Source: Caballeronia concitans
Lineage (GTDB): Bacteria; Pseudomonadota; Gammaproteobacteria; Burkholderiales; Burkholderiaceae
Reading direction: 5' to 3'
Assembly (NCBI RefSeq): GCF_001544615.1
Contig: NZ_FCNV02000002.1
Location: 707,934 to 771,933, forward strand
Length of the DNA: 64,000 bases
Part shown: piece after piece, positions 27,573 through 46,086 of the stretch
How positions within the stretch are numbered: position 1 is the stretch's first letter
How the letters are laid out: each line of letters begins with the position of its first letter
Position numbers and translations under genes: made by a program
The notes under the pieces: model-generated
What the model saw: the letters and a program-made list of their open reading frames with translations, nothing else
The model's database searches: none
What the model was told of the DNA's origin: nothing

Positions 27573-27592
27573 GTCGTCGATGCCCGATGGTC

Positions 27593-28933
27593 TCAATGGC
27601 GGATCGCCCAGAATTCGAGTTCGAGCGCCGGAAATTCGCCCGCGATATACATCGCCAGATTGCCGGTCTGCTCCAGTTCCTTCCACAGCTCGCCGCCGCG
27701 ATCCAGCTCGAAATACGAAAAGCCCGCGTGAAACGGAATCTGACGCGGCGCGACCGGCATGGCGCGCAGTCCGATGCCCGGCAGTGCGAGATTGACGAGA
27801 TCGCGCAGCTTTTCGGCGGGCGCGATCTTGACCTGCGTGGGAAAGCGCGTGCGCAGCGCCTCGCCCGGCATCTGCGCGTTCGCCGCGAGGACGAAGCCCG
27901 CGCTGCGCACGAGTTCGAGGTCGTTGATGAGCGCGACGCGCACGCCGGGCTTGCGGCTCTGCAATTCGATGGCGACGGCGTCCGGTTCGCGCACTTGCGC
28001 GAGCAGTTGGCGCACGTCGCGCATCAGCGGCTCGAACGACGCGGCGATGTCGTCGTGCCGATACGGCGGATACGCGGGCACGCGGCGGCGCTCGTCGAAG
28101 GCGGCGAGGTCGCCGGCGAACGCGAGCGTCGTCTGATAAAGGCGTTCGGGATGCAGAAGCGGCGATTGCAGCAGATGCGCGTACTGCGGCTCGAAGCGGT
28201 TGAGCGTTTGCAGCAGCAGAAAATCCGCGATTTCCGCGACGCCGCCGCGCCCCGGATTCGCGAGGCGGCTCGCGAGCCGGTCCGCGTGCTGATGCGCGAG
28301 TCCCGCGAGTTCCTGCGCGTAGCCGAGAAGACGCGCGTCGGCGAGCGCGTGGAGCATCGGCGGGATGTAGGCGGGATCGAGCACCACGCGATTGTCCGCG
28401 CGGCGCTCGAGCACGCGCGCGAGGCCGATGGTCGCGAAGGCGTCGGTGGCGTCGCGCGCGAGCATGAGCCGCAGATTCGGCGCGCCGACGCGGATTTGCG
28501 CGACGCGATCGGTGCTCGTGGTGACATCGGCGACGGAGGTATCGCTCGTGCGATAGCGCAGGTGATCGACGCGGTCCGTGGCGGCGGCATCGGAGTCGAA
28601 TTCCTTGGCGCCTGCGCGGGCGAGCGGGAGTGCGAGCAGCACGGTTTCGTCGCGCGTGCCGGGCGGGATGTCGAGCGGGGGCGGCGCGGGGGCGTCGTCG
28701 GGAAAGGAGAACGCGACGCCGTCGGGCAGCACGCCGAACGCCTGCGACAGCGCGATCTTGCCGAGCCCGAGCGCGATGTCGTCGATGCTCACGGCGGCCC
28801 AGCCCCACGACCACGCTTCGGTCGCGCGCGCATGGGAGCGCACGAGATGCTCGATGAAGCGGTCATGCTGCTGGAAATGCTGCGGTTCGAGGAAGAGGCC
28901 CTCGGACCAGATCATGCGTTGATGCCAGGTCAT
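27593..28933 (-). CDS. tssK: T6SS baseplate protein TssK
   Basis: 446 residues, the standard TssK length. It opens MTWHQRMIWSEGLFLEPQHFQQHDRF in outline, the family hallmark, and ends ALELEFWAIRH. TssK is the trimeric connector between baseplate and membrane complex. The frame stays open upstream to 29122, but homology starts exactly at the ATG at 28933. It is followed closely by tssL. Confidence 0.95.
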   Translation of the reverse strand: MTWHQRMIWSEGLFLEPQHFQQHDRFIEHLVRSHARATEAWSWGWAAVSIDDIALGLGKIALSQAFGVLPDGVAFSFPDDAPAPPPLDIPPGTRDETVLLALPLARAGAKEFDSDAAATDRVDHLRYRTSDTSVADVTTSTDRVAQIRVGAPNLRLMLARDATDAFATIGLARVLERRADNRVVLDPAYIPPMLHALADARLLGYAQELAGLAHQHADRLASRLANPGRGGVAEIADFLLLQTLNRFEPQYAHLLQSPLLHPERLYQTTLAFAGDLAAFDERRRVPAYPPYRHDDIAASFEPLMRDVRQLLAQVREPDAVAIELQSRKPGVRVALINDLELVRSAGFVLAANAQMPGEALRTRFPTQVKIAPAEKLRDLVNLALPGIGLRAMPVAPRQIPFHAGFSYFELDRGGELWKELEQTGNLAMYIAGEFPALELEFWAIRH

Positions 28934-29268
28934 GGTGGCTCGATTCCTTGGCTCGGGCGGGCGCTTACAGGACGCGAGGGCGTTCCGGGCGCTCCGGTCA
29001 AAGAACGATTGGGGGCGGGGAATTTGGAAGGGGGGCTGCTTGTGGGGCGTCTGGTGTGACGAATGGGGCGGACGTGGGCGGATGGATCGAATTAGCGACT
29101 CTGTCAGAAAGTCCTCAAGCATCTTTTCCAGGAACCACGAACCCGGTGCCGCATCGCCAGCCGATGTTCAGTGGCACCGTGCGCAGGATGGCTGCCGTTC
29201 GCCTTCGACGTCTGATTTCACTCGGGCTCGTCCATCGGCTGCTGAGTCACGCTCATATACCGCTTGAT
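28934..29268. other. 335-base stretch upstream of tssK without a recognisable gene
   Basis: Lies between tssK and the small gene ending at 29269. Frames on both strands are open, but their translations have no recognisable pattern. It is G-rich on the plus strand at 29005-29040. It may hold a secondary promoter for the tssK-kinase arm; I see no clear boxes. Confidence 0.5.
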
Positions 29269-30030: not shown

Positions 30031-30588
30031 TCACTTCCCAACCTTCTTCCCCACCGCCGCAGGCACCGCCTGCGCCGCGATACTCACATCGGCCGCATCG
30101 ACACGCACGTTCATCACCGTCGTCTGATTCGGCGGCACGGGCTCGGTGATACGCCAGCGCGATCGTTCGATATCCCGATACGCCGCCATCACCCCGACGA
30201 ACTTCGTGCCCGGCTGCACCGTCTGCTCCACGCTGCGGCTTTCGCCCGGCTTCAGCAGGAATTCGTTCTTCGCGTTGAGATCGCCGCCGAGCGTCGCCTG
30301 ATCCTTGCCGTAGAGCGTGAAGAAATCGGCGCTATCGAAGGCGGCGGTCGTCTTCAGCTCGTACACGCGCACGACGACGGGCGAGGGCCGCCCCGTGTGA
30401 TCCGGATTGACGCCATCGAGCGCATTCACGCTGATTCGCACGATGGTCGGCGCAGGCGGCGGAGGCGGCGACTTGCACGCGGCCACGGCGAGCATGCAAA
30501 GCAACACGGCGCAACGAGCGCAACGAAAGCAACAAAAGCAACAAAAGCAACAAAGCCGCATGAGAGCCATAAAACGCGCGCTGTCCAT
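30031..30588 (-). CDS. tssJ: T6SS outer-membrane lipoprotein TssJ (VasD/SciN)
   Basis: 185 residues. A signal peptide ends at lipobox LAVAAC, followed by KSPPPPP and the TssJ beta-sandwich with VVVRVYELKTTAAFDSADFF, then GVMAAYRDIERSRWR and VPPNQTTVMNV, all typical. It anchors the TssL-TssM complex to the outer membrane. The start is uncertain: ATG 30588, ATG 30570 or GTG 30624; the second gives a more normal signal length. The signal region encodes CCFCCFCCF from a 9-base tandem repeat, which is odd. First gene of the minus-strand arm, divergent from the CHAT protein gene. Confidence 0.9.
   Translation of the reverse strand: MDSARFMALMRLCCFCCFCCFRCARCAVLLCMLAVAACKSPPPPPAPTIVRISVNALDGVNPDHTGRPSPVVVRVYELKTTAAFDSADFFTLYGKDQATLGGDLNAKNEFLLKPGESRSVEQTVQPGTKFVGVMAAYRDIERSRWRITEPVPPNQTTVMNVRVDAADVSIAAQAVPAAVGKKVGK
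30526..30552. repeat. 9-base tandem repeat in the TssJ signal region
   Basis: Three perfect copies of AAAGCAACA (plus strand), with a degenerate copy before them. Read on the minus strand they encode repeats of Cys-Cys-Phe. Unit length is a multiple of three, so copy changes would alter signal length but keep the frame. Confidence 0.8.
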
Positions 30589-30728
30589 GATCCGTGATGA
30601 ACGCCTGAGTGAGACCGCCGACACAGCAGCAGACGATCCACGCCGCCGCGTTTTTCAAATCGGCTGCGGTGTTTCGTCTAATCGTGGCACCGCATCGCAC
30701 GATGCGGCGGTCATCGAGGAGCGCATTC

Positions 30729-32930
30729 GTGAAACCGATCGATCGGATCGCGCCGGCCCGTCTGAAGGCCGGTGCTCGCGTCGCGAAAAGCGACGCACGG
30801 CGGATCGCCACCACCTTCGCGATGTGCTGCGCGCTCGCCGCCGCCGCCGCCCGCGCCGATGCGCAATCGGCCCAATCGGCGCAGCGCACGCGCGACGAAG
30901 CGCCGACGCCCGCCGCGCGCCAGGCCGAAGCCCGCGTGCGCGACGCCGAAACCATCGCGACGCTCTCGCAAGAAGGGCGCCTTCTGCTCGCGCGCGATCA
31001 GGTCAAGCTCGACGGCTACGCGTACTGCAGCATGTCGGTGGCGGCGGCGGAGCGCGGGGATTTTCGCGAGAGCATCGAGGCGGCGTCGCGCGCGCTCGTC
31101 GTCGCCAAGGAGACGGACAACGCGAACCTCGCCGCGCTGTCGCGTCGCGATCTGGCCATCGCCTACAGCTACGCGGGCGATCTCCCCGACGCCGAACGCT
31201 ACGCGAAAGAGGCCATCGCCGCGGGCGCGGGCAATCCGCAGCAAGTGCTCGCGCCCGCGCACAAGGTGCTCGGCGACATCGCGGCGCGGCGCGGCGATCC
31301 GGCCGCCGCGCTCACCGAATATCGCGCGGCGCTCGCGACGGCTTCGGCGCGGTATCGGCCGATGGTGCTGCTCTCGATCACCAACGCGCAAATCGCCGCC
31401 GGCGATGCAGCCGGCGCGCGCGCGACCTTCGCGGAAACCGGCGGCATCGACGACACGCTGCTCGCGCCGCTCAGGAAACGCATCGAAGGCAATCTGCTGC
31501 TCGCCGAGCACAAGCCGCAACGAGCGCTCGACGCGTTCGCCGCCAGCGCCGCGAAAGGCGGCTCCGACGCCAGCTACGACAAGCTTTGGGCGCAGGAAGG
31601 CATGGGCCGCGCATACCTCGCGCTCGGCGACCGCGCGAAGGCGCGCGACGCGTGGCTCACCGCGCTCGACGAATCCGAGTCCATCCGCGCACGCTTTCGC
31701 AGCGACGAGTTCAAGACCGGTCTCTTCTCCGATACCCAAACGGTCTTCGAGGAAACGATCGCGCTCGTCGTCGAAGACGGCGATTACGCAGAGGCCTGGG
31801 CGCTCTCGGAAAAGAGCCGCAGCCGCGCGCTGCTCGACGTGGTGCGCAACCGGCTCGCATCCAGCGTCGGTGAAACGCAGCTCAACGGCCGCGCGCTGTC
31901 GCTCGACGATGTGCGCGGCGCGCTCAAACCCGGCGAGGCGATCGTCGAATATCACGGCCTGACCGACAAGATGATCGCGTGGGTCGTGCGCGCTGATGGC
32001 ATCCGGGGCTTCACGCTGCCGATCGCGCGCCGCGACATGGCGCTCGCCGTCGACGACTTTCGCGGCGCGATCGTGCGCGGGCGGCCGCAGGCGCTCACCT
32101 ACGGCGCGAAGCTCGACGCGCTCCTCATCGCGCCGCTCGGCCTGCGTCCGGGCGAACGGCTCATCGTCGTGCCGAACGGCGCGCTGCACTACATGCCGTT
32201 CCAGGCGCTGAAAAACGCGGACGGTTTTCTGATCCAGCGACACGCCATCGCGCTCGCGCCATCGGCGAGCGTCGCCGTGCAGCTCGTGCGGCGGCAGCAG
32301 CGCGTCGCGAGCAATCTCGTCGCGTTCGGCAATCCGCGCATTGCGCCGGAGTTCGATCTTCCGGGCGCGGAAGCCGAAGTCCGCGCCATCGGCCCGCTCT
32401 TCGCGCAGCGCGAAGCCTTCCTCCACGACGACGTTACGCGCAAGACCTTCAGCGACAACGCACCGGCGGGCCGCATCGTGCATGTGGCGACGCACGCGCA
32501 AGCCGACACCATCGATCCGCTGCATTCCCGCGTGCTGCTCGCGCCCGCCACGCAGCCCGCCGACGGTCCCGACCCGATGCTCGCGGAGGACATTTACAAC
32601 CTCAAGTTCGATTCCGTCGCGCTCGTGACCTTGTCCGCGTGCGAGACGGCGCTCGGGCGCATCGAGCGCGGCGACGAGATCATGGGCTTCACGCGCGCGT
32701 TCTTCTACGCGGGCGCATCGGCGCTGCTCGTATCGATGTGGCCCGTCGCCGATGAATCCACCGCGCTCACCATGCGCACGTTCTACGGCGGGCTCACGAA
32801 AGGCGAAGAAGCCATCGACGCGATGCGCGATGCACAACTCGCCGTGCTCGCCGACAGCAAGTTCGCGCATCCGTTCTACTGGGCGCCCTTCGATCTGATG
32901 GGCAACTGGCGGCTTTCGGTCGCGCGCTGA
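30729..32930 (+). CDS. Secreted TPR-CHAT protein (caspase-like peptidase family)
   Basis: 733 residues. A long basic N-terminus leads to a signal-like helix (IATTFAMCCALAAAAARADAQS), then TPR-like helical repeats (about 95-340; for example AWALSEKSRSRALLDVVRN). The C-terminal CHAT domain (about 400-733) has the catalytic dyad His589 in HVATHAQ and Cys638 in TLSACETALG, as in caspase/separase-like peptidases. The GTG start has an AGGAG site 8 bases upstream; an in-frame ATG at 30702 is an alternative. TpsB and TpsA genes follow directly. CHAT-TPR proteins are known neighbours of TPS exoproteins in several bacterial groups; processing of the exoprotein is a plausible role, but unproven. Confidence 0.88.
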   Translation: MKPIDRIAPARLKAGARVAKSDARRIATTFAMCCALAAAAARADAQSAQSAQRTRDEAPTPAARQAEARVRDAETIATLSQEGRLLLARDQVKLDGYAYCSMSVAAAERGDFRESIEAASRALVVAKETDNANLAALSRRDLAIAYSYAGDLPDAERYAKEAIAAGAGNPQQVLAPAHKVLGDIAARRGDPAAALTEYRAALATASARYRPMVLLSITNAQIAAGDAAGARATFAETGGIDDTLLAPLRKRIEGNLLLAEHKPQRALDAFAASAAKGGSDASYDKLWAQEGMGRAYLALGDRAKARDAWLTALDESESIRARFRSDEFKTGLFSDTQTVFEETIALVVEDGDYAEAWALSEKSRSRALLDVVRNRLASSVGETQLNGRALSLDDVRGALKPGEAIVEYHGLTDKMIAWVVRADGIRGFTLPIARRDMALAVDDFRGAIVRGRPQALTYGAKLDALLIAPLGLRPGERLIVVPNGALHYMPFQALKNADGFLIQRHAIALAPSASVAVQLVRRQQRVASNLVAFGNPRIAPEFDLPGAEAEVRAIGPLFAQREAFLHDDVTRKTFSDNAPAGRIVHVATHAQADTIDPLHSRVLLAPATQPADGPDPMLAEDIYNLKFDSVALVTLSACETALGRIERGDEIMGFTRAFFYAGASALLVSMWPVADESTALTMRTFYGGLTKGEEAIDAMRDAQLAVLADSKFAHPFYWAPFDLMGNWRLSVAR

Positions 32931-32983
32931 ACGTTCCGCTTCAATTCGCTTCACTTCGCCTGATTTTCGATAACGACGCAGCC

Positions 32984-34729
32984 GTGAACGACGCCATGAA
33001 TTCCTTCGCTATCCGTATCAATCCGCGTCGGCGCAAGCTCGCGCGCGTGGCCGGCGCGAGCATCGCGTGTGCGGGCGCGCTGTCGGCGTGGGCGCAGCAG
33101 GTGCCGCTTCCCGGCACGCAGCAGACGCCGAGCGCCGGCACGCTGCTCAACGAGCAGCCGCGTCCTTCCACCGCCGCGCCGCCGCCCGGCGCCACGAGCG
33201 CGCTGCCCGCGCCGCCGCCCGCCGCGCCGCCCGCGCCCGAGGGCCGCAAGTTCACGTTGAAGAGCATCCGCTTCGCGGGCAACGAGTCGCTGCCGTCCGA
33301 CGCGCTGCTTCCGCTCGTCGCCGACAAAATCGGCCAGGAAGTATCGATCAACGATCTCAATGCGATGGGCGCGCGCATCGCGGCGGCGTATCGGGAGCGC
33401 GGGTATCCGCTCGCGCAAGTGGTGATTCCGCCGCAGGACGTGACGCAAGGCGATGTGCTCTTTACCGTGCTCGAAGGCAAGATCGGGCGCGTGCGGCTGA
33501 CCGTTGCGCCCGGCGCGCCGATCAAGGAGTCGATGGTGCGCGCGCGGCTCGCCGCCATCGAGCCGGGCAAGCCGCTGAAGCAGGCGGAACTCGAACGCAC
33601 GATGCTGCTGCTGTCGGACTTGCCGGGCATCCGCGTGAGTTCGGCGCTGGAGACGGGCAGCACGCCTGGCACCGTCGATCTCGGCGTGACCGTGGAACCG
33701 GTGCGCCGCTGGAACTTCGCGGTCGCCGTCGACGACTACGGCGCGGCGCCCGCCGGCCGCTGGCGGCTCGGCGCGGTCGGGCGGCTCGCGTCGCCATTCG
33801 GTATCGGCGACAACCTCGACCTCAACCTGCTCGCCGCCGAACGCGCCGATACGGTCTACGGGCGCATCGGCTACGACGCACCGATCAACGCGTACGGCAC
33901 GCGCGCGGGCATCGCGTATTCGCATCTGTACTACTACCTCGGCCAGAACTTCTCGGCGCTCGACGCCCACGGTGAAGCCGATGTCGTGACCGCGTCGGTG
34001 TCGCATCCGCTCATCCGCTCGCGCAGCCAGAACCTGCTGCTGCGCGGCGCGCTGGAGTATCGGTCGCTCACGGACAAGATCGGCAGCGTGAGCTTCGAGA
34101 ATCCGCAAAAGCTGTACGTGGCGAGCGTCGGGCTGTCGTACGAAAGCCGCGACAGTTTTCTCGGCGGCGGCTTCAACAGCGCGGACGTGCAGCTTTCGTT
34201 CGCGCATCTGAACATCGATTCGGCGCTCGCGGAGCAGGTCGATCAGGGTCCGTTCGGCCGCCACGCCCAAGGCAACAGCGTGCGCCTGACGATGCAGGCC
34301 AACCGCCTCAACGCGATCACCCCGAAAACCAGCTTCTTTCTCGGCATGTCGGGGCAATGGGCGAACCAGAACCTCGACAGTTCGTCGCGCATCACGCTCG
34401 GCGGGCCGCGCGCGGTGCGGGCGTATTCGCCGTCCGAGGCGGTCGTCGACGAAGGGCTGATCGGCACGGCGCAGCTTCGTTACGCGGTGATTCCGTCGCT
34501 CACGCTGTCCGCGTTCTTCGATATCGGCGTCGGCCGCTACAACGCGCGCTCGATTCCCGGACAAGGCGCGAACACGGTGACGCGCAGCGGCGCGGGCATC
34601 GGCGCGTTCTGGAACGGGCCGTACGGCATCACGGTCGACGGCAGCATCGCCTGGCGCACCACCGGCCCCGACACCACCGGCGACGACAAGCTGCCGCGCG
34701 TGTACGTGCAGGTGTCCAAATCGTTTTAG
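32984..34729 (+). CDS. TpsB two-partner secretion transporter of the CHAT-TPS cassette
   Basis: 581 residues. Signal peptide (IACAGALSAWAQQ), a Pro-rich linker (about 40-85), and POTRA domains from FTLKSIRFAGNESLPSDALL (about 88) to residue 240 (AAAYRERGYPLAQVVIPPQDV in the first POTRA). A beta-barrel follows with the L6-loop motif RITLGGPRAVRAYSPSE near residue 470, and the protein ends in an aromatic residue (VQVSKSF). It should export the TpsA encoded 20 bases downstream. Start GTG at 32984; ATG at 32996 is the alternative and neither has a strong ribosome site. Confidence 0.92.
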   Translation: MNDAMNSFAIRINPRRRKLARVAGASIACAGALSAWAQQVPLPGTQQTPSAGTLLNEQPRPSTAAPPPGATSALPAPPPAAPPAPEGRKFTLKSIRFAGNESLPSDALLPLVADKIGQEVSINDLNAMGARIAAAYRERGYPLAQVVIPPQDVTQGDVLFTVLEGKIGRVRLTVAPGAPIKESMVRARLAAIEPGKPLKQAELERTMLLLSDLPGIRVSSALETGSTPGTVDLGVTVEPVRRWNFAVAVDDYGAAPAGRWRLGAVGRLASPFGIGDNLDLNLLAAERADTVYGRIGYDAPINAYGTRAGIAYSHLYYYLGQNFSALDAHGEADVVTASVSHPLIRSRSQNLLLRGALEYRSLTDKIGSVSFENPQKLYVASVGLSYESRDSFLGGGFNSADVQLSFAHLNIDSALAEQVDQGPFGRHAQGNSVRLTMQANRLNAITPKTSFFLGMSGQWANQNLDSSSRITLGGPRAVRAYSPSEAVVDEGLIGTAQLRYAVIPSLTLSAFFDIGVGRYNARSIPGQGANTVTRSGAGIGAFWNGPYGITVDGSIAWRTTGPDTTGDDKLPRVYVQVSKSF

Positions 34730-34749
34730 GGTCTGTGAAGGAGCGCGCA

Positions 34750-37700
34750 ATGAACGACACCACTTGCCTTCGGACCCGCAGGCATCGCCGCGAATGGGAA
34801 CGCGCGATCCGGCGTTTCGCGAAACGCGCCGCGCGTCATGCGGGCGCCGAGCTGAAGGCGTCGGCGCTGTTGCCGCTCCTCGTGCTCGTCGCCGCGCCGG
34901 GCGCGTTCGCGCTGCCGGTCGGCGAGCAGGTGCAGGCGGGCAACGTCGCGATCAACCGGCCGAGCGCCACCGCGATGACCATCACGCAAGGCTCGCAGAA
35001 GGGCATCGTCAACTGGAACGGATTCTCGATTCAGGGCAACGAGCGCGTGGACATTTCGCAGCCGTCGGCGCAGGCGGTGCTGCTCAACCGCGTCGTGGGC
35101 AACGAGGCGAGCCGCATCGCCGGGCAGCTCAACGCGAACGGGCAGGTGTTCCTCGTGAACCCGGCGGGCGTGATGTTCGCGCGCGGAGCGTCGGTGAACG
35201 TGGGATCGCTCGTCGCCTCGACGCTCGGCATTTCCGACGACGCGTTCCTCGCCGGCAAATACCGCTTCACGCAGGGCGGCGCGGCGGGCAGGAACGTGTC
35301 GATCGAACCGGGCGCGGCGATCACGGCGTCGACGGGCGGCGCGGTCGCGCTGCTGGGCGCGCAGGTGGACAACAGCGGCCACGTCAGCGCGACGCTCGGC
35401 AAGATCGCGATGGGCGCGGGCAGCGACATCACGCTCGACTTCGCGGGCGACGGCCTCACGATGCTGAAGGTCAACGACAAGGTCGCCAACGCGCTCGTGA
35501 ACAACGCGGGCGTGCTGGAAGCGGACGGCGGGCAGATCGTGATGTCGGTGCGCGCCGCCGACGAAGCCGCCGCGAGCGTGCTCAACCAGACGGGCACGGT
35601 GCGGGCGAGAAGCGTGGAGGCGCGCAACGGGCGCATCGTGCTCGACGGCGGCACGTCGGGCGTGACGGAGATCGCGGGCAGTCTCGACGCCAGCGCGCCG
35701 AACGGCGGCACGGGCGGGCGCATCGACGTGACCGGGCACGATGTCGCGCTGATGGACGGCGCGCGCATCGACGCGAGCGGCGCACAAGGCGGCGGACGCG
35801 TGCGCGTGGGCGGCGGCGCGGCGGGCAGGGAGGCGGACATCGCGAACGCGGACGGCCTGTGGATGAGCCCGAATGCCCACGTACTCGCCGATGCCCTCGC
35901 CGCCGGCGATGGCGGCAACGTCGTGATGTACGCGACGCAGGCGGCGCGCGTCTACGGCGAACTGTCGGCACGGGGCGGGGCGGGCGGCGGCAACGGTGGG
36001 CGCGTGGAGACGTCCGGCGGCTATCTGGAGACGAATGGCAGTCAGATTCACGTCGATGCCCCGATGGGCCGCGGCGGCGAATGGCTGCTGGACCCGGCGA
36101 GCCTGCTGATCGTGAGCACGCAGCCAAGCACGCTCGGCACGGCGGTATCCGCGCTCGATACGGGCGCGAACCGTGTCACCTTTTCACCCGGCGCGACCGA
36201 TAGCAGCGTGCTTGCGCAAGACATCAGCAATCAGCTCAACAGCGGCAGTTCGGTCACGCTTTCGACGAGCAACGGCGGCACGGGCGCATTCAACGGCGAC
36301 ATCACGATGCTGGGCGGCACGAGCATCACGAAAACCGGACCCGCTGCCGCCAACGACGCCACGCTCACGATGAGCGCCAACGGCTCGATCACGCTGCTCG
36401 GGACCATCGGCGGGGCGTCGGTGGCGCAGGAGGGGATTCCGAGCGCGCCGCCGAACGGAAGGCTGAACGTCGTGCTCGACGCCAACACGGGCGGCGCAGC
36501 GGCGGGCGCGAGCCGCATCGTGCTGTCGGGGGCGTCGATCAGCACGAACGGCGGCTTTCTGACCATCGGCGTGCCGCAGGCGCAGGCCGGCACGCCTGCC
36601 GCCGCGACGAGCTTCGACGGCGCGGCGGTCGGCATCGCAAATTCGCTGATCGACACACGCGTGCCGCAAGGGCCGGGCGGTCTCGCGAGCGGTTCCATCA
36701 CCATCAACGGACAAGGCGCGCTGACCATTCCGAACACGAGCTTCGGCATCAGCGACACGTTCCTCGGCTTTCCCACGAGCACGCCGCTCGCGGCGGTCAA
36801 CATGCTGAATTCGTCGCTCGCCACGTCCGTCAGCGATATCTCCGTCAGCGGGCAAGCGGGGAATGCGTCGCCGGTTGCGCTGGGCGGCGTGTCGATGAGC
36901 GGCGCGACGCAGCTCAGCACGACGAGCGGAAACATCGACATTCGCGGCGTCGCGCAAGTGGTGCCGACCGTGTCGACGGGGCTCTCGACGGGCGTGTCGG
37001 GCATCGGCGTCGCGCTCATCCCGACGACGGGCAGCACCGTGCAGGCGCCGAGCCTCGTCACGCAGTCGGGCGCGATCAGCATCGACGGCACCGCGCCGGA
37101 CGTGACGGCATCGACTTCGGTGTCGGGCGCGGGCGTGGGGATCGAAGGCGCGACCATCAGCACCGCGACCGGCGATGTGTCGGTCACGGGCCGCGCGCCT
37201 GCTTATTCCACCAACGTGCTGGCGGGCAGCAGCCGCGTAGATGGCGTGGACCTCGCCGGCACGCGCCTCGCAGCGGGCGGGCGCATGCTCGTGCAAGGCA
37301 CGGTGCAGCCCGCGCCGGGCGTGCCTGTCGGCGTGCCGGGAACGGGCGTTTCGGTGACCGGCAACGCGAACGCACCGACGGCGATCACATCGGCCAACGC
37401 GGACATACGCATCTTCGGCGGCGGCAACGCGCTGCCGGGCGTGTCGATGCAAGGCGATATCGGCGGCGGCAACGTGCGGCGGGTGGATGTCCGTACGACC
37501 AACGGCGATATCGACATTCGCGGCTACACGACGAATCAGCCCGACGACGGCGTGGTCTTCCCCGGCGTGCAGATCAGCGATGCGTCCGTGACCGCGCAGG
37601 GCAACGGCCGTCTGCTGTCGATCACCGGGCAGACGCCCAGCACGTCACCGGCCATCGCGCTCAACAACTCGGTGATTTCGGCGGGACGCGACCCGGACGC

Positions 37701-40700
37701 CTACGAGACTTTCGACACGGGCGGCACGCTCGTGCTGCGCGCCACGAGCGGGACGAACGCGGCCGCGCCCATCACGATCACGACGGCGCTCTCGACGGTG
37801 TCGCCGTCGCTGTTCGCGCCGGGCGGCAATCTCGTGTTCGTGCCGGGCGGCCTCGCGCCGGACACGTTCGATCTCGTCGCGCAGAACGCCACGCCGATCA
37901 ACGTCGGCGGGACCGCCAGCGGATTCACCATCACGCCCACGGTGCTCGGCCAGATTTCGCCGAACGTGCTGAACGTGCTCGCCGGATCGTCCACGCATAC
38001 GGGGCCGATCGCGCTGAACATCGAGAATCCCGCGCCGAGCGCGCAGTCGCTGACGCTCGCGAACGGCGGCGCGGGCAGCGAGGGCATCACGCTGCCCGTC
38101 GGCTTTTCCGGCAATACGCTGACCTTGCAGTCGGCCGGAACGGTGACGGAAGGCGGCGCGGGCATCCGGGCATCGGCGCTCAATCTCGTCGGGTTCGGCG
38201 CGTTCAGTTTGACGGGCGCGCCGAACAGCGTCGGGTCGCTCAGCTTCTCCGGCACGCGCGACGTGACGATGACGAATGCGGGCGACATCTCCATCGCCAA
38301 TCCCACGGGCGTGACGTTCGATAACGCGACCGGGCGCGTCGTGCCGCCGACGACGGGCGTGGTCCCGACGCTCGCGGGTAGTCTCGATCTGCGCACGACC
38401 GCGGGCGTCGCAGGCACCCCGGGCGACATTTTCGTGCCGGTGCCGATCGTCGAAACCGCGAGCGGCGCTTCGACGATCGCGTTTCATTCGAACGGCGTGC
38501 TGCACTTGCAGAACGACATCACGTCCACGGCCGGTCCGCTCGATATCGTCGCGGATGCGCGCAACGCGATCATCGCGCTCGGCAATGCGGGCGAAGGCCC
38601 GGAGTACCGCATCCGCTTCGCGACGAACGGCGGCAGCGTCGCGATGGGCACGGCGAACGGCGGCACCACCGGCTTCGACGGCGCGACGGTGCAGGTCCAT
38701 TCGACGGACATCGACACGGGCGGCGGCAACGTCACGCTGCACGGCATCGCGCCGGCGCAGATTTCGACGGGCGACGGCGTGGCGTTCCCCGCGTTCGGCA
38801 CGGCGTACGGCGTCGATTTGAACGACGCGACGATCCGCTCCGGCACGGGCAGCATCGAAGTGGAAGGCCAGAGCCTGAACGCGGCGGCGAACCCGGGCGG
38901 CGGCGTGATCCTTCGCAACGCGGGCAACGCGGCGAGCGTGAATCCGGGGCCGACGCAGCTCGTCTCGCTGGCGACGGACTCGGCGAACCTGACCGATTCG
39001 GCGGGCGCCGCTGCGGTCCGTGTCTTCGGCGCGGCGAGCGGCGCGGGCAACAACGGCGTTGCGATGCTGGATGGCGCATCGGTGCAAGCGCCGAACGGAA
39101 CCGTCGATGTGCGCGGCCACGCGACCGGCGTGAATGGCGTGAATGGCGCGAATGCCGGCGGATACGGCGCGCTGCTGTGGTCCGGATCGATCGCGGCGGC
39201 GAACGTGCGCGTCACCGGCTCGACGGATTCGGCGACGCCCGGCTTAGGCATCGGCGCGGTGAACGTGCCGCCGAACGCGGGATTCGCGGCCCCGGCGTTC
39301 GGCATCGGCGCGGGCGCGTCGGGCGCGGTCATCCTGCGTTCGGCGAACGACGGCACGGACAGCAGCATCGCCGTGCGCGGCGCGCCCGCGCCCATCGCCG
39401 CGCCCGGCGGGACACTCGGCATCGCGCCGGCATCCGTCGATCCGTCGAGCTTCGCCGTGACCGCGCAGAACGACGTGCCGGTCACGCTCTTCGGCACGAG
39501 CGCGACACCGGGCCTTTCCATCGACGCGCAGAGCTATCAGGCGTTCTCGCCCGCCATCGCGACGCTCGTGCTCGGGTCGTCGACGCAGAACGGGCGCATC
39601 GTGGTCGAAGGCGCGTGCGCGGGCGGCGCGGGTTGCGCCGCGCGGCCCGCCGTCGCGACGAGCCTCACGCTGCAGAACACCGGCGCGAACAGTCAGGGCA
39701 TCGGTCTGCCGTCCGGCATCGCGCTGCCCGGCAAGACGCTCGCGCTCGATTCGTCCGGTGCCGTGACCGATCCGGGCGGCATCGCGGCGAAAACGCTGCT
39801 GCTCGCGGGCGGCGGCAACTTCGATCTCGTCGATGCGGGCAACCGTGTCGAATCGCTCGCGCTCGCGGGCGCGCACGACGTGCGGTTTTCGAATGCGGGC
39901 GGCTTCGTGATCGGCGCGGCGAACGCGAACGGACTCGATGGCGCGACCGGCAACGTCGCCCCGATCGGCGGACCGCCCGCGAGCGTGACCGGCGACCTGA
40001 CCGCCATCGCGGACACTGGCGCGATCGCGCTCGGCGTTCCCGGCGCGCCGACGCCGCTCAGTGCGGGCGGCAGCATCGATCTCGTGATGCAGCAAGCCAT
40101 CTTCCAGAACGATGCGGGCGGCACGCTGAACGCGGGCAACGCGTGGCGCATATGGGCGCGCTCGCGCAGCGACGAGCGGCGCAACGGCGTGGAACCCGGC
40201 GGCACGCTGCCGAACTTCTACGGCTGCCTCTACGGCGGCGTTTGCAGCTGGAACGGGCTGCCGTCGCAGGACGTCGTGCCGGCGAGCGGCAATCACTTCG
40301 TGTACGCGGACCGGCCCGTCGCGCGGGTCGTCATCGGCGATCAGGCGCGCGTCGAAGGCACGCCGAACGGCCCGTTCACCTTCGACGTGACCGGGCTGCT
40401 CGGCGGCGATCAGCGCGGCTCGGCGATCGTCGGCGACGTGACCGGCACGTCCGCGACGACGAATTCGCCGCCCGGCCGCTATGCGATCAACGGCGCGTTC
40501 TCGTCGCCTGTGGGCTACGAGGTGGTCGTCGTGCCGGGCACGCTTATCGTCACGCCGATGGAGTTTCAGGGCGCGGTCTTCAATCGCAGCGGCCTGCAGC
40601 CGCTTTTCACGGCGCAGGAGCAGAGCTTCGTCTACGAAAGCAATCTGGGCGGCGTGAACATTTGCGTCGGCACGAACGAGCCGGTCCTCGCGCTGCAACA

Positions 40701-40812
40701 GTCCGAAGGTCCGGCCGACACGCTCGCGGCGGAATGGAAGCGCGTGCGCTCGCGGCCGAATCTCAACAACTGCCTCGTGGTGAACGGGCAGCACGGCTGC
40801 GGCGAGTTCTGA
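34750..40812 (+). CDS. Large TpsA exoprotein (filamentous haemagglutinin-type beta-helix)
   Basis: 2020 residues. An extended signal peptide ends near PGAFALPVG (about 55), followed by the TPS domain with SQKGIVNWNGFSIQGNERVDI and secretion motif NPAGVMF at 137-143. The rest is a long Gly/Ala/Thr/Asn-rich beta-helix with many short repeats. Near the C terminus, a segment (YADRPVARVVIGDQARV to VVVPGTLIVTP) looks like an MBG-type adhesin domain, followed by a short Cys-containing tail. No CDI toxin tail is visible. It is likely a surface or secreted adhesin, exported by the preceding TpsB. An AGGAG ribosome site precedes the ATG; tssA starts 12 bases after its stop. Confidence 0.92.
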   Translation: MNDTTCLRTRRHRREWERAIRRFAKRAARHAGAELKASALLPLLVLVAAPGAFALPVGEQVQAGNVAINRPSATAMTITQGSQKGIVNWNGFSIQGNERVDISQPSAQAVLLNRVVGNEASRIAGQLNANGQVFLVNPAGVMFARGASVNVGSLVASTLGISDDAFLAGKYRFTQGGAAGRNVSIEPGAAITASTGGAVALLGAQVDNSGHVSATLGKIAMGAGSDITLDFAGDGLTMLKVNDKVANALVNNAGVLEADGGQIVMSVRAADEAAASVLNQTGTVRARSVEARNGRIVLDGGTSGVTEIAGSLDASAPNGGTGGRIDVTGHDVALMDGARIDASGAQGGGRVRVGGGAAGREADIANADGLWMSPNAHVLADALAAGDGGNVVMYATQAARVYGELSARGGAGGGNGGRVETSGGYLETNGSQIHVDAPMGRGGEWLLDPASLLIVSTQPSTLGTAVSALDTGANRVTFSPGATDSSVLAQDISNQLNSGSSVTLSTSNGGTGAFNGDITMLGGTSITKTGPAAANDATLTMSANGSITLLGTIGGASVAQEGIPSAPPNGRLNVVLDANTGGAAAGASRIVLSGASISTNGGFLTIGVPQAQAGTPAAATSFDGAAVGIANSLIDTRVPQGPGGLASGSITINGQGALTIPNTSFGISDTFLGFPTSTPLAAVNMLNSSLATSVSDISVSGQAGNASPVALGGVSMSGATQLSTTSGNIDIRGVAQVVPTVSTGLSTGVSGIGVALIPTTGSTVQAPSLVTQSGAISIDGTAPDVTASTSVSGAGVGIEGATISTATGDVSVTGRAPAYSTNVLAGSSRVDGVDLAGTRLAAGGRMLVQGTVQPAPGVPVGVPGTGVSVTGNANAPTAITSANADIRIFGGGNALPGVSMQGDIGGGNVRRVDVRTTNGDIDIRGYTTNQPDDGVVFPGVQISDASVTAQGNGRLLSITGQTPSTSPAIALNNSVISAGRDPDAYETFDTGGTLVLRATSGTNAAAPITITTALSTVSPSLFAPGGNLVFVPGGLAPDTFDLVAQNATPINVGGTASGFTITPTVLGQISPNVLNVLAGSSTHTGPIALNIENPAPSAQSLTLANGGAGSEGITLPVGFSGNTLTLQSAGTVTEGGAGIRASALNLVGFGAFSLTGAPNSVGSLSFSGTRDVTMTNAGDISIANPTGVTFDNATGRVVPPTTGVVPTLAGSLDLRTTAGVAGTPGDIFVPVPIVETASGASTIAFHSNGVLHLQNDITSTAGPLDIVADARNAIIALGNAGEGPEYRIRFATNGGSVAMGTANGGTTGFDGATVQVHSTDIDTGGGNVTLHGIAPAQISTGDGVAFPAFGTAYGVDLNDATIRSGTGSIEVEGQSLNAAANPGGGVILRNAGNAASVNPGPTQLVSLATDSANLTDSAGAAAVRVFGAASGAGNNGVAMLDGASVQAPNGTVDVRGHATGVNGVNGANAGGYGALLWSGSIAAANVRVTGSTDSATPGLGIGAVNVPPNAGFAAPAFGIGAGASGAVILRSANDGTDSSIAVRGAPAPIAAPGGTLGIAPASVDPSSFAVTAQNDVPVTLFGTSATPGLSIDAQSYQAFSPAIATLVLGSSTQNGRIVVEGACAGGAGCAARPAVATSLTLQNTGANSQGIGLPSGIALPGKTLALDSSGAVTDPGGIAAKTLLLAGGGNFDLVDAGNRVESLALAGAHDVRFSNAGGFVIGAANANGLDGATGNVAPIGGPPASVTGDLTAIADTGAIALGVPGAPTPLSAGGSIDLVMQQAIFQNDAGGTLNAGNAWRIWARSRSDERRNGVEPGGTLPNFYGCLYGGVCSWNGLPSQDVVPASGNHFVYADRPVARVVIGDQARVEGTPNGPFTFDVTGLLGGDQRGSAIVGDVTGTSATTNSPPGRYAINGAFSSPVGYEVVVVPGTLIVTPMEFQGAVFNRSGLQPLFTAQEQSFVYESNLGGVNICVGTNEPVLALQQSEGPADTLAAEWKRVRSRPNLNNCLVVNGQHGCGEF

Positions 40813-40824
40813 AGAGGAGCCGGC

Positions 40825-41850
40825 ATGATCGACGTCGAACCGCTGCTCGCGCCGACCGCGACCGATCCGCCCGCGGGCATCGACCTGGAATACGACGCGG
40901 CGTTTCTCGCGTTCGAAGCGCTCGCGCGCGAGCATCCCACGCGTCAGTTCGATACCCCCGCCGAGCCGCCGCCCTGGAACGACGTGCTCGAACAGGCGGA
41001 AGCGCTGCTCGCCCTCTCGAAGGACGTGCGCGTGGCGGTGGCGTGGACGCGCGCGGCGTCGCATGTGCATGGGCTGGCGGGTTTCATCGCGGGCATGCGC
41101 TTGCTGACCGGGCTTATCGAGCGTTACTGGGACGGGCTTTATCCGCCGCTCGATCCGGACGAAGCCGGCGACGGCGGCGATGCCGCGCTGCGCATCAACG
41201 CGCTCGCGCCGCTCGCGGATGCGTACACGCCGTTCGCCGAAGCCGAAACGCTGCTGCACGATCTGCGCGAATGCGAGGTGTGTCGTGTGCACGGCGAGCG
41301 CCTGACGGTGCGCGACATGCTGGTCGCGCAGGGACGGCTCGCGCCGCAGGAAGGCGCGAGCGCCGCGAGCCTGCCGCGCGTGGAAGGCATGCTCGCCGAT
41401 GCCCTCGCGCACGATCCCGCCCTGCGCGCCGATGCGCTCGATCTGCCGCGTGCGGTGGAGGCGCTGGCGGCGTGCATCGGCGGGAAGCTGGGCGCGGCCC
41501 GCGCGCCGTCGATGAGCGCGTTGACGACGACCGCGCGCTACATCGCCGCGCCGTTTCGTTCAATGACGCCCGTCGATGTTCCGCACGAAACAGCCGAAGC
41601 GGAAGAACCCGCGCCGCCGATGCATCGCGGTGTCGCGCGTTCCGGCGAGATTGCATCGCGCGAAGCGGCCATCGCCGCGCTCGATGCGGTCTGCGCGTTC
41701 CTCGAACGCACCGAGCCGACGAGTCCCGCGCCGCTCTTGATTCGACGCGCGCGCGGGCTGATCGGCAAGGACTTTCTCGCGGTGATGCAGGACCTCGCGC
41801 CCGACAGCCTCGCGCAGATTCATCTGATCGCGGGCACGCGGCCCGAGTGA
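40825..41850 (+). CDS. tssA: T6SS protein TssA (ImpA N-terminal domain)
   Basis: 341 residues. The ImpA_N signature is clear: PAGIDLEYDAAFLAFEALAR, then DVLEQAEALLALSKDVRVAVAWTRA and LIERYWDGLYPPLDPDE. The C-terminal part (RRARGLIGKDFLAVMQDLAPDSL) is typical of shorter TssA proteins. TssA docks at the baseplate and guides sheath polymerisation. A GAAGAGGAG ribosome site precedes the ATG. It starts 12 bases after the large tpsA stop, so it may be co-transcribed with the CHAT-TPS cassette. Confidence 0.93.
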   Translation: MIDVEPLLAPTATDPPAGIDLEYDAAFLAFEALAREHPTRQFDTPAEPPPWNDVLEQAEALLALSKDVRVAVAWTRAASHVHGLAGFIAGMRLLTGLIERYWDGLYPPLDPDEAGDGGDAALRINALAPLADAYTPFAEAETLLHDLRECEVCRVHGERLTVRDMLVAQGRLAPQEGASAASLPRVEGMLADALAHDPALRADALDLPRAVEALAACIGGKLGAARAPSMSALTTTARYIAAPFRSMTPVDVPHETAEAEEPAPPMHRGVARSGEIASREAAIAALDAVCAFLERTEPTSPAPLLIRRARGLIGKDFLAVMQDLAPDSLAQIHLIAGTRPE

Positions 41851-41919: not shown

Positions 41920-42387
41920 ATGAGCGGACGCGATTTCATCGAGCCTTTGACGATGCCGGTCGTCGAAGGCGCTCGCATCGGCGAGCTCGTGGGCTTCAGC
42001 GGCGAGGGCGCGCGTCCGCTCGTCGTGTACGCAGGGCAGCCGGGCGGCGCGGCGCTCGTCGCACGCACCGTCGCCGATGTGCGCGGCGCGCATATCGGGC
42101 GCGAAGTGCTGTTGATTTTCGAGGCGGGCGATCCGGCGCGGCCCGTCATCATCGGATGCCTTCAGGCGGATGAACCGTGGCCGCTCGACGAAGCGCCCGC
42201 GCAGGTCGAAGCGGACGCGGACGGGCAAAGGCTCGTGGTGACGGCGAAGGAAGAGATCGTGTTGCGCTGCGGGCAGGCGAGCATCACGCTCACGAAGGCG
42301 GGCAAGGTGCTGATACGCGGCACGTATGTGTCGAGCCGGTCGTCGGGCGTGAACCGCATCAAGGGCGGATCGGTGCAGCTCAATTGA
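41920..42387 (+). CDS. DUF6484-type T6SS accessory protein
   Basis: 155 residues. The N-terminal half is a small beta domain (LTMPVVEGARIGELVGFSG, VGREVLLIFE-like). The C-terminal half (VVTAKEEIVLRCGQASITLT, GKVLIRGTYVSSRSSGVNRI) resembles the gp5-like spike repeats of VgrG and the DUF6484 proteins found in T6SS cargo islands. It probably helps load the downstream PAAR-like effector onto the spike; that role is inferred from context. No signal peptide. Confidence 0.75.
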   Translation: MSGRDFIEPLTMPVVEGARIGELVGFSGEGARPLVVYAGQPGGAALVARTVADVRGAHIGREVLLIFEAGDPARPVIIGCLQADEPWPLDEAPAQVEADADGQRLVVTAKEEIVLRCGQASITLTKAGKVLIRGTYVSSRSSGVNRIKGGSVQLN

Positions 42388-42398
42388 CGCCTGCGAAG

Positions 42399-43499
42399 AT
42401 GGAACTGATCAACGCCACCCGCATGATCGCGGGCTACACGATGGGCACCGAGCCGAGCGGGCGCGAGTCGCTCGTGGTCGTCGTCAAGGGCACGTTTCGC
42501 CTGCCCGCGCCGGGCGAAGCGGTGCGTCTCGCCGATGAACAGGCGCCGCTCGTCATGGCCGATACCTTCACCGGCGAGCCGGGATTTTCCGCGCCGTACT
42601 ACGAGGTGGACTACGCGCCGCACAAGCCGCGCTGCGACGTGCTGCTGCTCGGCTGCGCGCACGCGCCGGGCGGACGTCCCGCGACGCGCGTGCCGGTGGC
42701 CTTGCGCGTGGGCAACATGGTGAAGCAGTTCGCGGTGGTGGGCGATCGTGTGTGGCAGGCGGGCGCGACGCGCATCGAGCCGAGCGCGCCGGTGCCGTTC
42801 GTATCGAAGCCGATTACCTACGATTGCGCGTTCGGCGGCATCGATCAGGAGCACGAAGATCCGATGCAGCATGCGGCGTTCATGGCGAATCCGGTCGGGC
42901 GCGGGTTCCGGCGGCATGTGCGGCGCGAATGGGTCGATGGGCGCTTGCTGCCGAATACCGAGGAGCTGGATCGGCCGGTGATGCGTCCGGACGAGGCGTA
43001 TCGGCCGATGTCGTTCGGGGTGCTCGGGCGCGGCTGGGACGCGCGGTATCGGCACGCGGGCACGTACGACGATGAATGGATGGAGAAGCACTTTCCGTTT
43101 CTGCCGCCGGATTTCGACGAGCGCTATTACCAGGCCGCGCCCGAGGATCAGCAATTGGTGAAGCCTGTGGGCGGTGCCGAAGTGACGCTGATCAACTTGA
43201 CTGCCGATGGAAGGCGCAGCTTCGCGCTGCCGGATTTCGAAGCGCCGGTGCTGGTGGTGCCGAAGCATGGCGAGCCGGAGGATTATCGGGCGGGCGTCGA
43301 TACGATCGTGTTCGAGCCGGAACTCGAGCGGTTCACGATGAGCTGGCGGGTACGCAGACCGCTCAGGAAGAACATGTTCGAGGTCGCGCGGGTGCTGGTG
43401 GGGCGGAAGGGGAGGGAGTGGTGGCGGGAGTGGGAAGCGGAGGCGTTTCCTGTTCCGATCGTGGCAATGCAGACCGATGCGCGCGGGGGAATGCGATGA
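42399..43499 (+). CDS. DUF2169 T6SS effector-adaptor protein
   Basis: 366 residues. Recognised by its opening (TMGTEPSGRESLVVVVKGTF), APYYEVDYAPHKPRCDVLLLG, the SKPITYDCAFGGID motif near residue 135 and the N-P-V-G-R-G-F motif. DUF2169 proteins are adaptors encoded beside PAAR/DUF4150 effectors and are needed to deliver them. It is coupled to the next gene by an ATGA overlap. Confidence 0.85.
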   Translation: MELINATRMIAGYTMGTEPSGRESLVVVVKGTFRLPAPGEAVRLADEQAPLVMADTFTGEPGFSAPYYEVDYAPHKPRCDVLLLGCAHAPGGRPATRVPVALRVGNMVKQFAVVGDRVWQAGATRIEPSAPVPFVSKPITYDCAFGGIDQEHEDPMQHAAFMANPVGRGFRRHVRREWVDGRLLPNTEELDRPVMRPDEAYRPMSFGVLGRGWDARYRHAGTYDDEWMEKHFPFLPPDFDERYYQAAPEDQQLVKPVGGAEVTLINLTADGRRSFALPDFEAPVLVVPKHGEPEDYRAGVDTIVFEPELERFTMSWRVRRPLRKNMFEVARVLVGRKGREWWREWEAEAFPVPIVAMQTDARGGMR

Positions 43500-45423: not shown

Positions 45424-45441
45424 CGATGAAGGAGATGACAC

Positions 45442-46086
45442 GTGAACGACTTCGATGAGTTGACCGAATTCGTGGAATGGGAAGGCGATGTCGAATGGAT
45501 CGAGCTTCCCGCCGATGCCGCAAAACTCGCGGCGCTGAACGTTCCCGCAGCGTGGCATGCGGCCCTGACGCAATCGCCGGACGTCGAGTCCTGCGTTCTC
45601 GAATTGTGGTCGGGTCTGGCCGCCGTCATGCCGCGAACGCGCGCTGCCTTTTCGAAGAAAGCCGTCGCGCTCGCGCTGCTGCGCACAAACAAGACACCGT
45701 TGTCGCTGGTCTATGTATTCGATACGGGAACCATCCTGACCGCTCGACGCGGCTATCCGCCGGTCGACGCGCTGCCCGACATTGCCCGGAAATTTCCGGT
45801 CGATCTGTCGCCGCTATACGCGCTTCACGACGGACTGACTCACTTCGCGAGCGGAGATGCCGGCCCGATGCCGAGCGATGAATGGGAAACGCTCCAAGAC
45901 CCCGAGTCGGGCGAAGAAACGCTCGTCAAGATTCTGATGGACGGCAGCGAGATGCTCGGCTTCAGTATCTCGGAGCCGCAATGTCCAGCCTATTTCGTCC
46001 AGCCGGAAGACGATAGCGTCGAGCAGATCGATGACGTTTGGGCGTTGCTCGATGAAATCCTCGCCGCTCCGATCGAGAATTTTTGA
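45442..46086 (+). CDS. Probable immunity protein (SUKH/SMI1-KNR4-like) for the HNH effector
   Basis: 214 residues, strongly acidic. It shows SUKH-like features: PLSLVYVFDTGTILTARRGYPP, then LSPLYALHDGLTHFASGDAGPMPSDEW, and PECPAYFVQPEDD-like strands near the end. No signal peptide, as expected for an immunity protein that blocks a cytoplasmic DNase. GTG start with a GAAGGAG ribosome site. Position immediately after the effector is the main support; family assignment is moderately sure. Confidence 0.75.
   Translation: MNDFDELTEFVEWEGDVEWIELPADAAKLAALNVPAAWHAALTQSPDVESCVLELWSGLAAVMPRTRAAFSKKAVALALLRTNKTPLSLVYVFDTGTILTARRGYPPVDALPDIARKFPVDLSPLYALHDGLTHFASGDAGPMPSDEWETLQDPESGEETLVKILMDGSEMLGFSISEPQCPAYFVQPEDDSVEQIDDVWALLDEILAAPIENF

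What the first reader, a model, noticed from the sequence alone, without database searches (positions are those of the whole stretch)
30729..40812. CHAT protease-family protein, TpsB and TpsA cassette embedded in a T6SS locus
A 10-kb plus-strand block (secreted TPR-CHAT protein with intact His/Cys dyad, TpsB, 2020-residue TpsA) splits the T6SS genes between tssJ and tssA. The tpsA stop is 12 bases from the tssA start, so the adhesin and T6SS arm may share transcription. CHAT-TPS neighbours are known in other bacteria, but location inside a T6SS suggests joint use: an adhesin to hold prey, a contact-dependent weapon, and a protease-like protein to process or release the exoprotein.
Basis: partly seen in the sequence, partly recalled or inferred. 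Interest (0 to 1): 0.75.

Follow-up and report, generated by a model that had tools for sequence, protein, structure and literature searches.

The report
T6SS-linked adhesin and CHAT protease cassette
A gene trio for a large exported surface protein, its outer-membrane exporter and a probable periplasmic protease is built into a bacterial contact weapon (the type VI secretion system) and has stayed with that weapon across several bacterial families, which suggests the surface protein and the weapon work together.

Summary
In a Caballeronia-type genome a plus-strand trio (secreted TPR-CHAT protein, TpsB, 2020-aa TpsA) lies between tssJ and tssA of a complete T6SS locus, 12 nt separating tpsA from tssA. 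The location is not chance. All 22 relatives found in a 299-genome family sample carry the CHAT beside T6SS genes, as do 51 of 52 named loci with CHAT at 48% identity or more (Caballeronia, Paraburkholderia, Burkholderia, Polaromonas, Pseudoduganella, Thauera, MAGs); the exception is a 5.8-kb contig. Of 81 other TpsB matches in those genomes, 2 lie within 25 kb of a listed tssK. The trio sits in at least two T6SS lineages. New here: TpsA ends in a near-invariant tail (EWxRVRxxPNLxxC, then C and a final F; three Cys), found in exactly the 23 genomes of 299 that have the CHAT, once each, while the passenger middle is hypervariable. CHAT His589/Cys638 are invariant; its predicted fold resembles Csx29 and separase. 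Best reading: a T6SS-partnered adhesin, anchored by a cysteine-hook-like tail and processed or released by a periplasmic CHAT protease, much as LapG acts on CdrA. Export, cleavage, prey binding and a link to T6SS firing are inferred, not shown.

The parts
30729..32930 (+). Secreted TPR-CHAT protein (733 aa): signal-peptide-like N terminus, TPR helices, CHAT domain with His589/Cys638
   Evidence: Pfam CHAT E 1.5e-63 and TPR; dyad invariant in 23 of 23 and 45 of 45; hydrophobic N-terminal stretches judged by eye in relatives' frames; AlphaFold mean pLDDT 80.7, Foldseek top hits Csx29/Craspase TPR-CHAT, DdvA, separase
32984..34729 (+). TpsB transporter (581 aa; POTRA_2 plus ShlB barrel)
   Evidence: Pfam E 2.8e-20 and 1.3e-20
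34750..40812 (+). TpsA exoprotein (2020 aa): N-terminal TPS domain, hypervariable middle (about residues 607-1212), MBG_2 domain, conserved C-terminal tail
   Evidence: Pfam TPS E 2.3e-34, MBG_2 E 5e-10; TIGR01901 adhes_NPXG E 7.7e-20; conservation profile
40660..40809 (+). C-terminal tail of TpsA, last 50 aa, Cys at -49, -13 and -4 from the end; cysteine-hook-like anchor or CHAT recognition site (inferred)
   Evidence: Alignments A2 and A3; tails of 46 named loci printed; one tail in each of exactly the 23 CHAT genomes of 299
40813..40824 (+). 12-nt gap between tpsA stop and tssA start, with ribosome-binding-like AGAGGAG
   Evidence: read directly
40825..41850 (+). tssA, first T6SS gene of the right arm
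   Evidence: Pfam ImpA_N E 1e-28; TIGR03363 160.6 bits, just under its cut-off of 160.85
30031..30624 (-). tssJ lipoprotein, first gene of the divergent left arm
   Evidence: Pfam T6SS-SciN E 1.7e-38
19959..29122 (-). Left T6SS arm: ppkA, tagF, tssM, tssL, tssK
   Evidence: Pfam
41920..61400 (.). Right T6SS arm: DUF6484, DUF2169, ketoacyl-synthase-like, Tox-PAAR-like and HEAT-repeat cargo, tssB, tssC, PP2C phosphatase, FHA, clpV, tssG, tssF, tssE, hcp, vgrG
   Evidence: Pfam and NCBIfam

Best explanation
The trio is a dedicated T6SS partner module. TpsB exports TpsA as a long fibre whose middle varies between species. The conserved C-terminal tail, with two cysteines in the last 13 residues, stays behind in or under the TpsB pore as a hook, so the adhesin remains cell-bound. 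The secreted TPR-CHAT cysteine protease works in the periplasm, recognises that tail or the region next to it, and trims or releases the adhesin. The adhesin brings target cells into the lasting contact that the neighbouring T6SS needs, and the protease lets go of them or resets the surface. Shown here: gene order, conservation and co-occurrence. Inferred: export and adhesion (from families), periplasmic location of CHAT (from N-terminal sequence judged by eye), the hook, the cleavage, and the functional link to the T6SS.
For: Linkage: 22 of 22 other family genomes with the CHAT and 51 of 52 named loci have T6SS genes beside it. Background: of 103 TpsB matches in those 23 genomes, 18 of the 22 identified cassette TpsBs lie within 25 kb of a listed tssK, 2 more within 30 kb, 2 on broken contigs; of the 81 others, 2 lie within 25 kb. 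0 of 40 other T6SS loci of the family have a CHAT or TpsB match. The trio sits in at least two T6SS lineages (one-clade AU test p 1.15e-6). CHAT-tail tie: the tail is in exactly the same 23 of 299 genomes as the CHAT, once each, and in 0 of 368 other class-sample genomes. The tail keeps 51% identity (last 32 residues 65%) in a distant set of 19 while residues 607-1212 fall to 0-6%. CHAT fold and invariant dyad. Precedent: CdrA, a TPS adhesin with MBG2 domains held in CdrB by a cysteine hook and cut in its periplasmic C-terminal tail by the protease LapG (PMC7616799, PMC5422565, PMC6156197; passages).
Against: No experiment. The tail was not modelled with confidence (pLDDT under 50 from residue 163 of 241), so no structure supports a hook. 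CHAT folds can be regulatory: DdvA, an anti-sigma factor, is among the top fold hits. Linkage can persist without joint function. In G034 the trio lies at the tssM end, away from tssA; in G638 it is about 11 kb from the T6SS; so coupling to tssA is not needed everywhere. In L148, L153 and L158 no left-arm tss gene was found in about 10 kb upstream. The one-to-one tie of tail and CHAT could simply reflect orthology of one inherited cassette. The TpsB and CHAT trees do not settle how the cassette reached the second T6SS lineage.
Confidence: 0.5

Rival explanations
1. Contact sensor: engagement of TpsA on a neighbour changes the periplasmic tail, CHAT responds, and the signal gates T6SS assembly, for example through the PpkA/PP2C/FHA/TagF proteins encoded at the same locus.
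For: ppkA lies upstream on the opposite strand with no tssJ match in 23 of 52 named loci (in L154 other tss genes lie between); tagF, ppkA, a PP2C phosphatase and FHA are in the window locus; a PP2C-like gene lies between tpsA and tssA in L125, by reading; TPR-CHAT proteins of Craspase, top fold hits here, are switchable proteases (recalled); two other CHATs sit near ppkA-like genes (L253, L258).
Against: No sensor-to-kinase connection is visible; CHAT shows no membrane anchor beyond the signal-peptide-like stretch; ppkA is common in T6SS loci (recalled).
Confidence: 0.17
2. Hitchhiking: an ordinary TPS adhesin with a processing protease that happens to travel with T6SS loci, without working with them.
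For: TPS systems are common (103 TpsB matches in 23 genomes); linkage by itself does not prove function; in G034 and G638 the coupling is loose.
Against: Conservation over loci of Burkholderiaceae, Comamonadaceae, Oxalobacteraceae and Zoogloeaceae and over two T6SS lineages; 2 of 81 other TpsB matches are within 25 kb of a listed tssK.
Confidence: 0.2
3. Polymorphic toxin (CDI/FhaB-like): TpsA itself delivers a toxic C terminus to neighbours, a second contact weapon beside the T6SS.
For: TpsA is large and in a weapon locus.
Against: Its C terminus is highly conserved rather than variable, and in the window it ends 12 nt before tssA with no gene between; no toxin domain in Pfam or NCBIfam.
Confidence: 0.04
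4. CHAT acts on something else (T6SS parts, incoming effectors, or as an immunity factor) and only the TPS pair is an adhesin.
For: CHAT proteins in a Bacteroides fragilis T6SS region were proposed, without test, as immunity proteins (PMC11854122, passages).
Against: CHAT and the TpsA tail co-occur one to one in the family sample, and the CHAT-TpsB-TpsA order is kept in the 48 of 52 named loci where TpsA is held.
Confidence: 0.09

Closest known systems
CdrA/CdrB with LapG (Pseudomonas aeruginosa)
   Same: TPS adhesin with MBG2 domains; C terminus held in the transporter by a cysteine hook; a periplasmic protease cuts the tail to release it (passages).
   Different: LapG is controlled by c-di-GMP; the protease here is a CHAT protein encoded next to the adhesin; a T6SS link is not part of the CdrA system (recalled). 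Cleavage here is untested and the tails were not compared by sequence.
Csx29 / Craspase TPR-CHAT
   Same: TPR plus CHAT; best Foldseek hits for the model (8eey_B E 7.6e-16).
   Different: Csx29 works in the cytoplasm with an RNA-guided complex (recalled); here the protein is predicted secreted and sits with a TPS pair. A sequence search of solved structures found nothing at E 0.01.
T6SS clusters of environmental Burkholderia sensu lato (T6SS-b and others)
   Same: Core tss genes with ppkA; group B loci resemble P. phymatum T6SS-b in having ppkA nearby and no tssJ (no tssJ match in L222-L226).
   Different: Term searches of the main text of five papers on such clusters found no mention of hemagglutinin, CHAT-domain or adhesin genes in them; the table of P. 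phymatum lists core components only, and figures are not held. T6SS type was not tested with typed references.
FhaB/FhaC and HMW1A/HMW1B
   Same: TpsB-TpsA pair, TPS domain with NPxG-type motif.
   Different: No CHAT and no T6SS in their operons (recalled).
CdiA/CdiB
   Same: TPS architecture used for contact with other bacteria.
   Different: Here the C terminus is constant and no immunity gene follows.

Membership tests
Two-partner secretion (type Vb) | TpsB with POTRA and ShlB-type barrel domains | tested here: met
   Pfam POTRA_2 and ShlB
Two-partner secretion (type Vb) | TpsA with TPS domain and NPxG motif | tested here: met
   TPS E 2.3e-34; adhes_NPXG E 7.7e-20; NP[AN]G found by pattern in 42 of 47 TpsAs
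Two-partner secretion (type Vb) | Secretion of TpsA by its TpsB | not testable with these tools
   needs experiment
CHAT peptidases | CHAT domain with His-Cys dyad | tested here: met
   Pfam E 1.5e-63; H589 and C638 invariant 23 of 23 and 45 of 45; dyad geometry in the model was not measured
CHAT peptidases | Proteolytic activity | not testable with these tools
   needs experiment
Cysteine-hook adhesin released by periplasmic protease (CdrA-LapG type) | MBG2 domain before the C terminus | tested here: met
   MBG_2 residues 1860-1932, E 5e-10
Cysteine-hook adhesin released by periplasmic protease (CdrA-LapG type) | C-terminal cysteine hook | tested here: inconclusive
   Cys at -13 and -4 invariant in 34 of 34 rows; the tail is not modelled with confidence; not compared with CdrA by sequence
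Cysteine-hook adhesin released by periplasmic protease (CdrA-LapG type) | LapG-type protease with LapD control | tested here: not met
   The neighbouring protease-like protein is CHAT, not LapG; LapG or LapD elsewhere in the genome was not looked for
CDI / polymorphic toxin TPS | Variable C-terminal toxin followed by an immunity gene | tested here: not met
   C terminus conserved; tssA follows after 12 nt
Type VI secretion system | Thirteen core tss genes | tested here: met
T6SS-b type | Placement in the published T6SS tree | not tested
   no typed references were put in the trees

The most novel reading that the evidence does not exclude
The cassette makes this a T6SS with its own built-in contact detector: an anchored TPS fibre touches a neighbour, its conserved periplasmic tail reports to a TPR-CHAT protease, and proteolysis licenses T6SS firing at that site, an outside-in proteolytic trigger for a contractile injection machine.
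Probability: 0.12. Interest if true: 0.9.

Novelty: new variant of a known kind. Interest (0 to 1): 0.62.

Why it matters
How T6SS-armed cells achieve stable contact with targets, and how firing is tied to contact, are open questions. A TPS adhesin and a protease-like protein that are genetically fixed to the T6SS in several families give a defined, testable set of genes for both. The conserved TpsA tail also predicts a substrate or docking site for a secreted CHAT protein.

Tried and rejected
Local insertion into an otherwise ordinary T6SS: rejected. In the 299-genome family sample all 18 listed tssK places of 55% identity or more are in genomes with the CHAT and beside it. No empty site was found in this lineage.

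Toxin (CDI) reading: rejected, see rivals.

Transfer of the trio between T6SS lineages: favoured, not proven. TssK data reject one clade of all CHAT-positive T6SSs (p 1.15e-6) and reject window-type plus Paraburkholderia-type as one clade (p 1.7e-5). A CHAT tree rooted on distant CHATs puts those two together (97/92) but does not reject the TssK-like arrangement (p 0.217; long outgroup branches). The AU test printed (p 4.75e-76) is not a test of this conflict, because it also split Polaromonas and Pseudoduganella from the other outside-family rows; I do not use it. In one search the splits already in the trees are uninformative without a root; the tests run there gave p 0.055 (TpsB, {A,P} held together), 0.276 (TssA, {A,A2,B}) and 0.021 (TssA, {A,P}), which do not settle it. 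The TssC tree needs 3 changes and puts three CHAT-positive rows (L141, L144, L157) on a long separate branch, unlike TssK.

Promoter and terminator scan: no promoter found (0.5 expected), 3 terminator-like sites (7.4 in shuffles); no weight placed on it.

Papers: CHAT domain with two-partner secretion, filamentous hemagglutinin, TpsA, or hemolysin activation returned 0 papers each. CHAT domain with type VI secretion returned 5; passages of two were seen, neither describing this. Other listings. Passages also seen in PMC10778856, PMC8929069 and PMC6692535, nothing on such a cassette. Most subscription papers are not held, so 'not in print' is not claimed. No paper was read whole; all were seen as listings or passages.

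Rows dropped: L149 and L170 from A4 because their translations contain a stop, L167 when the list was shortened. A4 used 45 rows out of the 73 loci plus window. Trees used chosen subsets: 71 TssK rows, 38 of 52 loci given for TssC, those with over 80% of its length, 31 CHAT rows, 28 TpsB and 23 TssA rows, 28 rows.
Full report
WHAT IS THERE. The window lies in a 6.17-Mb genome. Its closest locus is that of Caballeronia grimmiae (TssK 95% identical). A complete T6SS locus spans about 20-61 kb. The left arm (ppkA, tagF, tssM, tssL, tssK, tssJ) runs on the minus strand. The plus strand then carries CHAT 30729-32930, tpsB 32984-34729, tpsA 34750-40812, tssA 40825-41850, a cargo set (DUF6484, DUF2169, a ketoacyl-synthase-like protein, a Tox-PAAR-like protein, an unknown, a HEAT-repeat protein), tssB and tssC. 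The tpsA-tssA gap is 12 nt with a ribosome-binding-like stretch.

THE LINKAGE IS REAL. In a sample of 299 genomes of the family, 23 (own included) have this CHAT protein at E 1e-30 or better. I fetched the DNA round the other 22: in 22 of 22 the CHAT gene is beside T6SS genes, 17 with tssJ divergent and 5 with ppkA divergent. Of these, 52 have CHAT at 48% identity or more; the other 21, at 26-38%, have no TpsB by BLAST or profile in the DNA held. Of the 52, 51 have T6SS genes within the held flank of up to 10 kb: 35 on both sides, 12 only upstream, 4 only downstream. The exception, L149, is a 5.8-kb contig that ends 374 nt after the CHAT match; the genes upstream of CHAT there look, by my reading, unrelated to T6SS. 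TpsB was found in 51 of 52 and TpsA in 48 of 52; the four without TpsA are contigs that end early.

CONTROLS. Forty other T6SS loci of the family (tssK 37-50% identical) have no CHAT or TpsB match in 9-20 kb. The 23 genomes hold 103 TpsB matches, some of them pieces of one gene. Of the 22 identified as the cassettes' own, 18 lie within 25 kb of a listed tssK, two more within 30 kb, and two are on broken contigs; of the 81 others, 2 lie within 25 kb: the second TPS pair of this window and its C. grimmiae counterpart. One search lists 45 of the 48 tssK matches of these genomes and keeps only E 1e-60 or better, so the count for others is a lower bound. The tssA-tssB cargo is an internal contrast: where both genes are held (24 named loci) the gap is 46-236 nt in 20, so no cargo. 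Loci with long cargo are under-counted there, since tssB then falls outside the DNA: L109, L115, L116 and L117, besides L123, carry DUF6484.

TWO T6SS LINEAGES. A TssK tree of 31 CHAT-positive and 40 CHAT-negative rows splits the positives into a window-like clade with Polaromonas and Pseudoduganella (99/95) and a Paraburkholderia-type clade lying among CHAT-negative T6SSs (98/90); one clade for all is rejected (p 1.15e-6). TssC agrees in placing the second group among CHAT-negative rows, though it puts three other positive rows on a long separate branch. Whether the trio moved between T6SS lineages or was lost repeatedly is not settled: the rooted CHAT tree favours a move (97/92) but the alternative is not rejected (p 0.217). 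Either way the trio remained beside a T6SS.

LOOSER CASES. Estimated from BLAST-placed starts, tpsA stops 9-15 nt before tssA in 17 of the 52 named loci, 42-153 nt in 8, and 2.3-4.3 kb in 14; in 7 tssA is outside the DNA held and in 6 the locus is cut short. In L125 the larger gap holds opposite-strand genes that by reading look like a glycosyltransferase, a PP2C phosphatase and an unknown. In G034 the trio lies at the tssM end of the locus. In the order sample (399 genomes) one further genome, G638, has the full trio with tail; its T6SS begins about 11 kb downstream, with other genes between. G528 has CHAT pieces at two contig ends and no tssC match. The other seven order-level hits match only the C-terminal, CHAT-domain half of the profile and have no TpsB beside them.

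THE TAIL. All 46 complete TpsA ends printed share the same kind of tail: a Cys about 48 residues from the end, then (E/D)W(K/R/S/A)RVR..PNL..C, then a Cys three residues before a final Phe. Alignment A3 (34 rows) has N, C, P, L, W, R-V-R, P-N-L, C, C and F of the tail invariant. Exceptions outside that set: L146 has HVR for RVR, and L045 (G034) ends in Tyr. A profile of the tail (A2) finds one match in each of exactly the 23 genomes that have the CHAT and none in the other 276; in a class sample of 369 it finds only the own genome. Both searches score only the best first-look candidates per genome (up to 19 and 15), so a very divergent tail could be missed. In an alignment of 47 TpsAs the TPS domain and the last quarter are conserved, whereas residues 607-1212 fall to 0-6% identity in a distant set of 19, mostly gaps over all rows; trimmed lengths run from 1287 to 2588. 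The tail is thus the opposite of a polymorphic toxin end.

CHAT. AlphaFold gives mean pLDDT 80.7. Foldseek's first hits are Csx29 and other TPR-CHAT chains of Craspase, the anti-sigma factor DdvA, and separase; TM-scores normalised to the query are 0.34-0.55 over the first 26, so the relation is of architecture, not of close kinship. N termini of relatives show a hydrophobic stretch and small-residue site typical of signal peptides, judged by eye, no predictor being at hand. Export to the periplasm is likely, not shown.

MECHANISM. The closest working precedent is CdrA-CdrB-LapG: CdrA carries MBG2 domains, is held by its C terminus in CdrB through a cysteine hook, and is cut in its periplasmic C-terminal tail by LapG to release it (PMC7616799; PMC5422565; PMC6156197; passages). 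The present TpsA has an MBG_2 domain followed by a tail with two terminal cysteines, and a secreted cysteine-protease-like protein encoded next to it. I infer the same logic with a different protease. The hypervariable middle fits a species-tuned binding region or stalk. The partner is the T6SS, which needs close contact. Confidence 0.5 for this whole reading; higher (about 0.75, my estimate) for 'a functional partner of the T6SS of some kind'.

NOVELTY. TPS, CHAT and T6SS are all known. I found no paper that describes their union in one locus type, in the searches listed under Tried and rejected, which cover openly licensed papers only. The annotation of a C. grimmiae replicon names the genes separately. 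I file it as a new variant of a known kind: a T6SS with an integral TPS-CHAT module.

Noticed in passing
   Followed up: partly
L253 (G100) and L258 (G071): Other, larger CHAT proteins (open frames 1065 and 1097 aa) lie near ppkA-like kinase genes, without TPS genes.
   Followed up: no
window 41920-47334: Variable cargo between tssA and tssB (DUF6484, DUF2169, ketoacyl-synthase-like, Tox-PAAR-like, unknown, TIGR02270) that many relatives lack; looks like a T6SS effector-loading island.
   Followed up: partly
L125 17627-20073: In this Paraburkholderia locus opposite-strand genes, one PP2C-like, separate tpsA from tssA; 13 other named loci have a gap of like size that I did not read.
   Followed up: partly
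L288 (NZ_CP084273.1): In C. grimmiae Lep1A1, from the bug Leptoglossus zonatus, the locus is on a 916-kb replicon, so it may be a secondary-replicon trait of insect-associated strains.
   Followed up: no
L157 17274-17996: TpsA of Burkholderia sp. S171 has a long G-N-G-G-P-rich repeat before the tail where others have the MBG domain.
   Followed up: no
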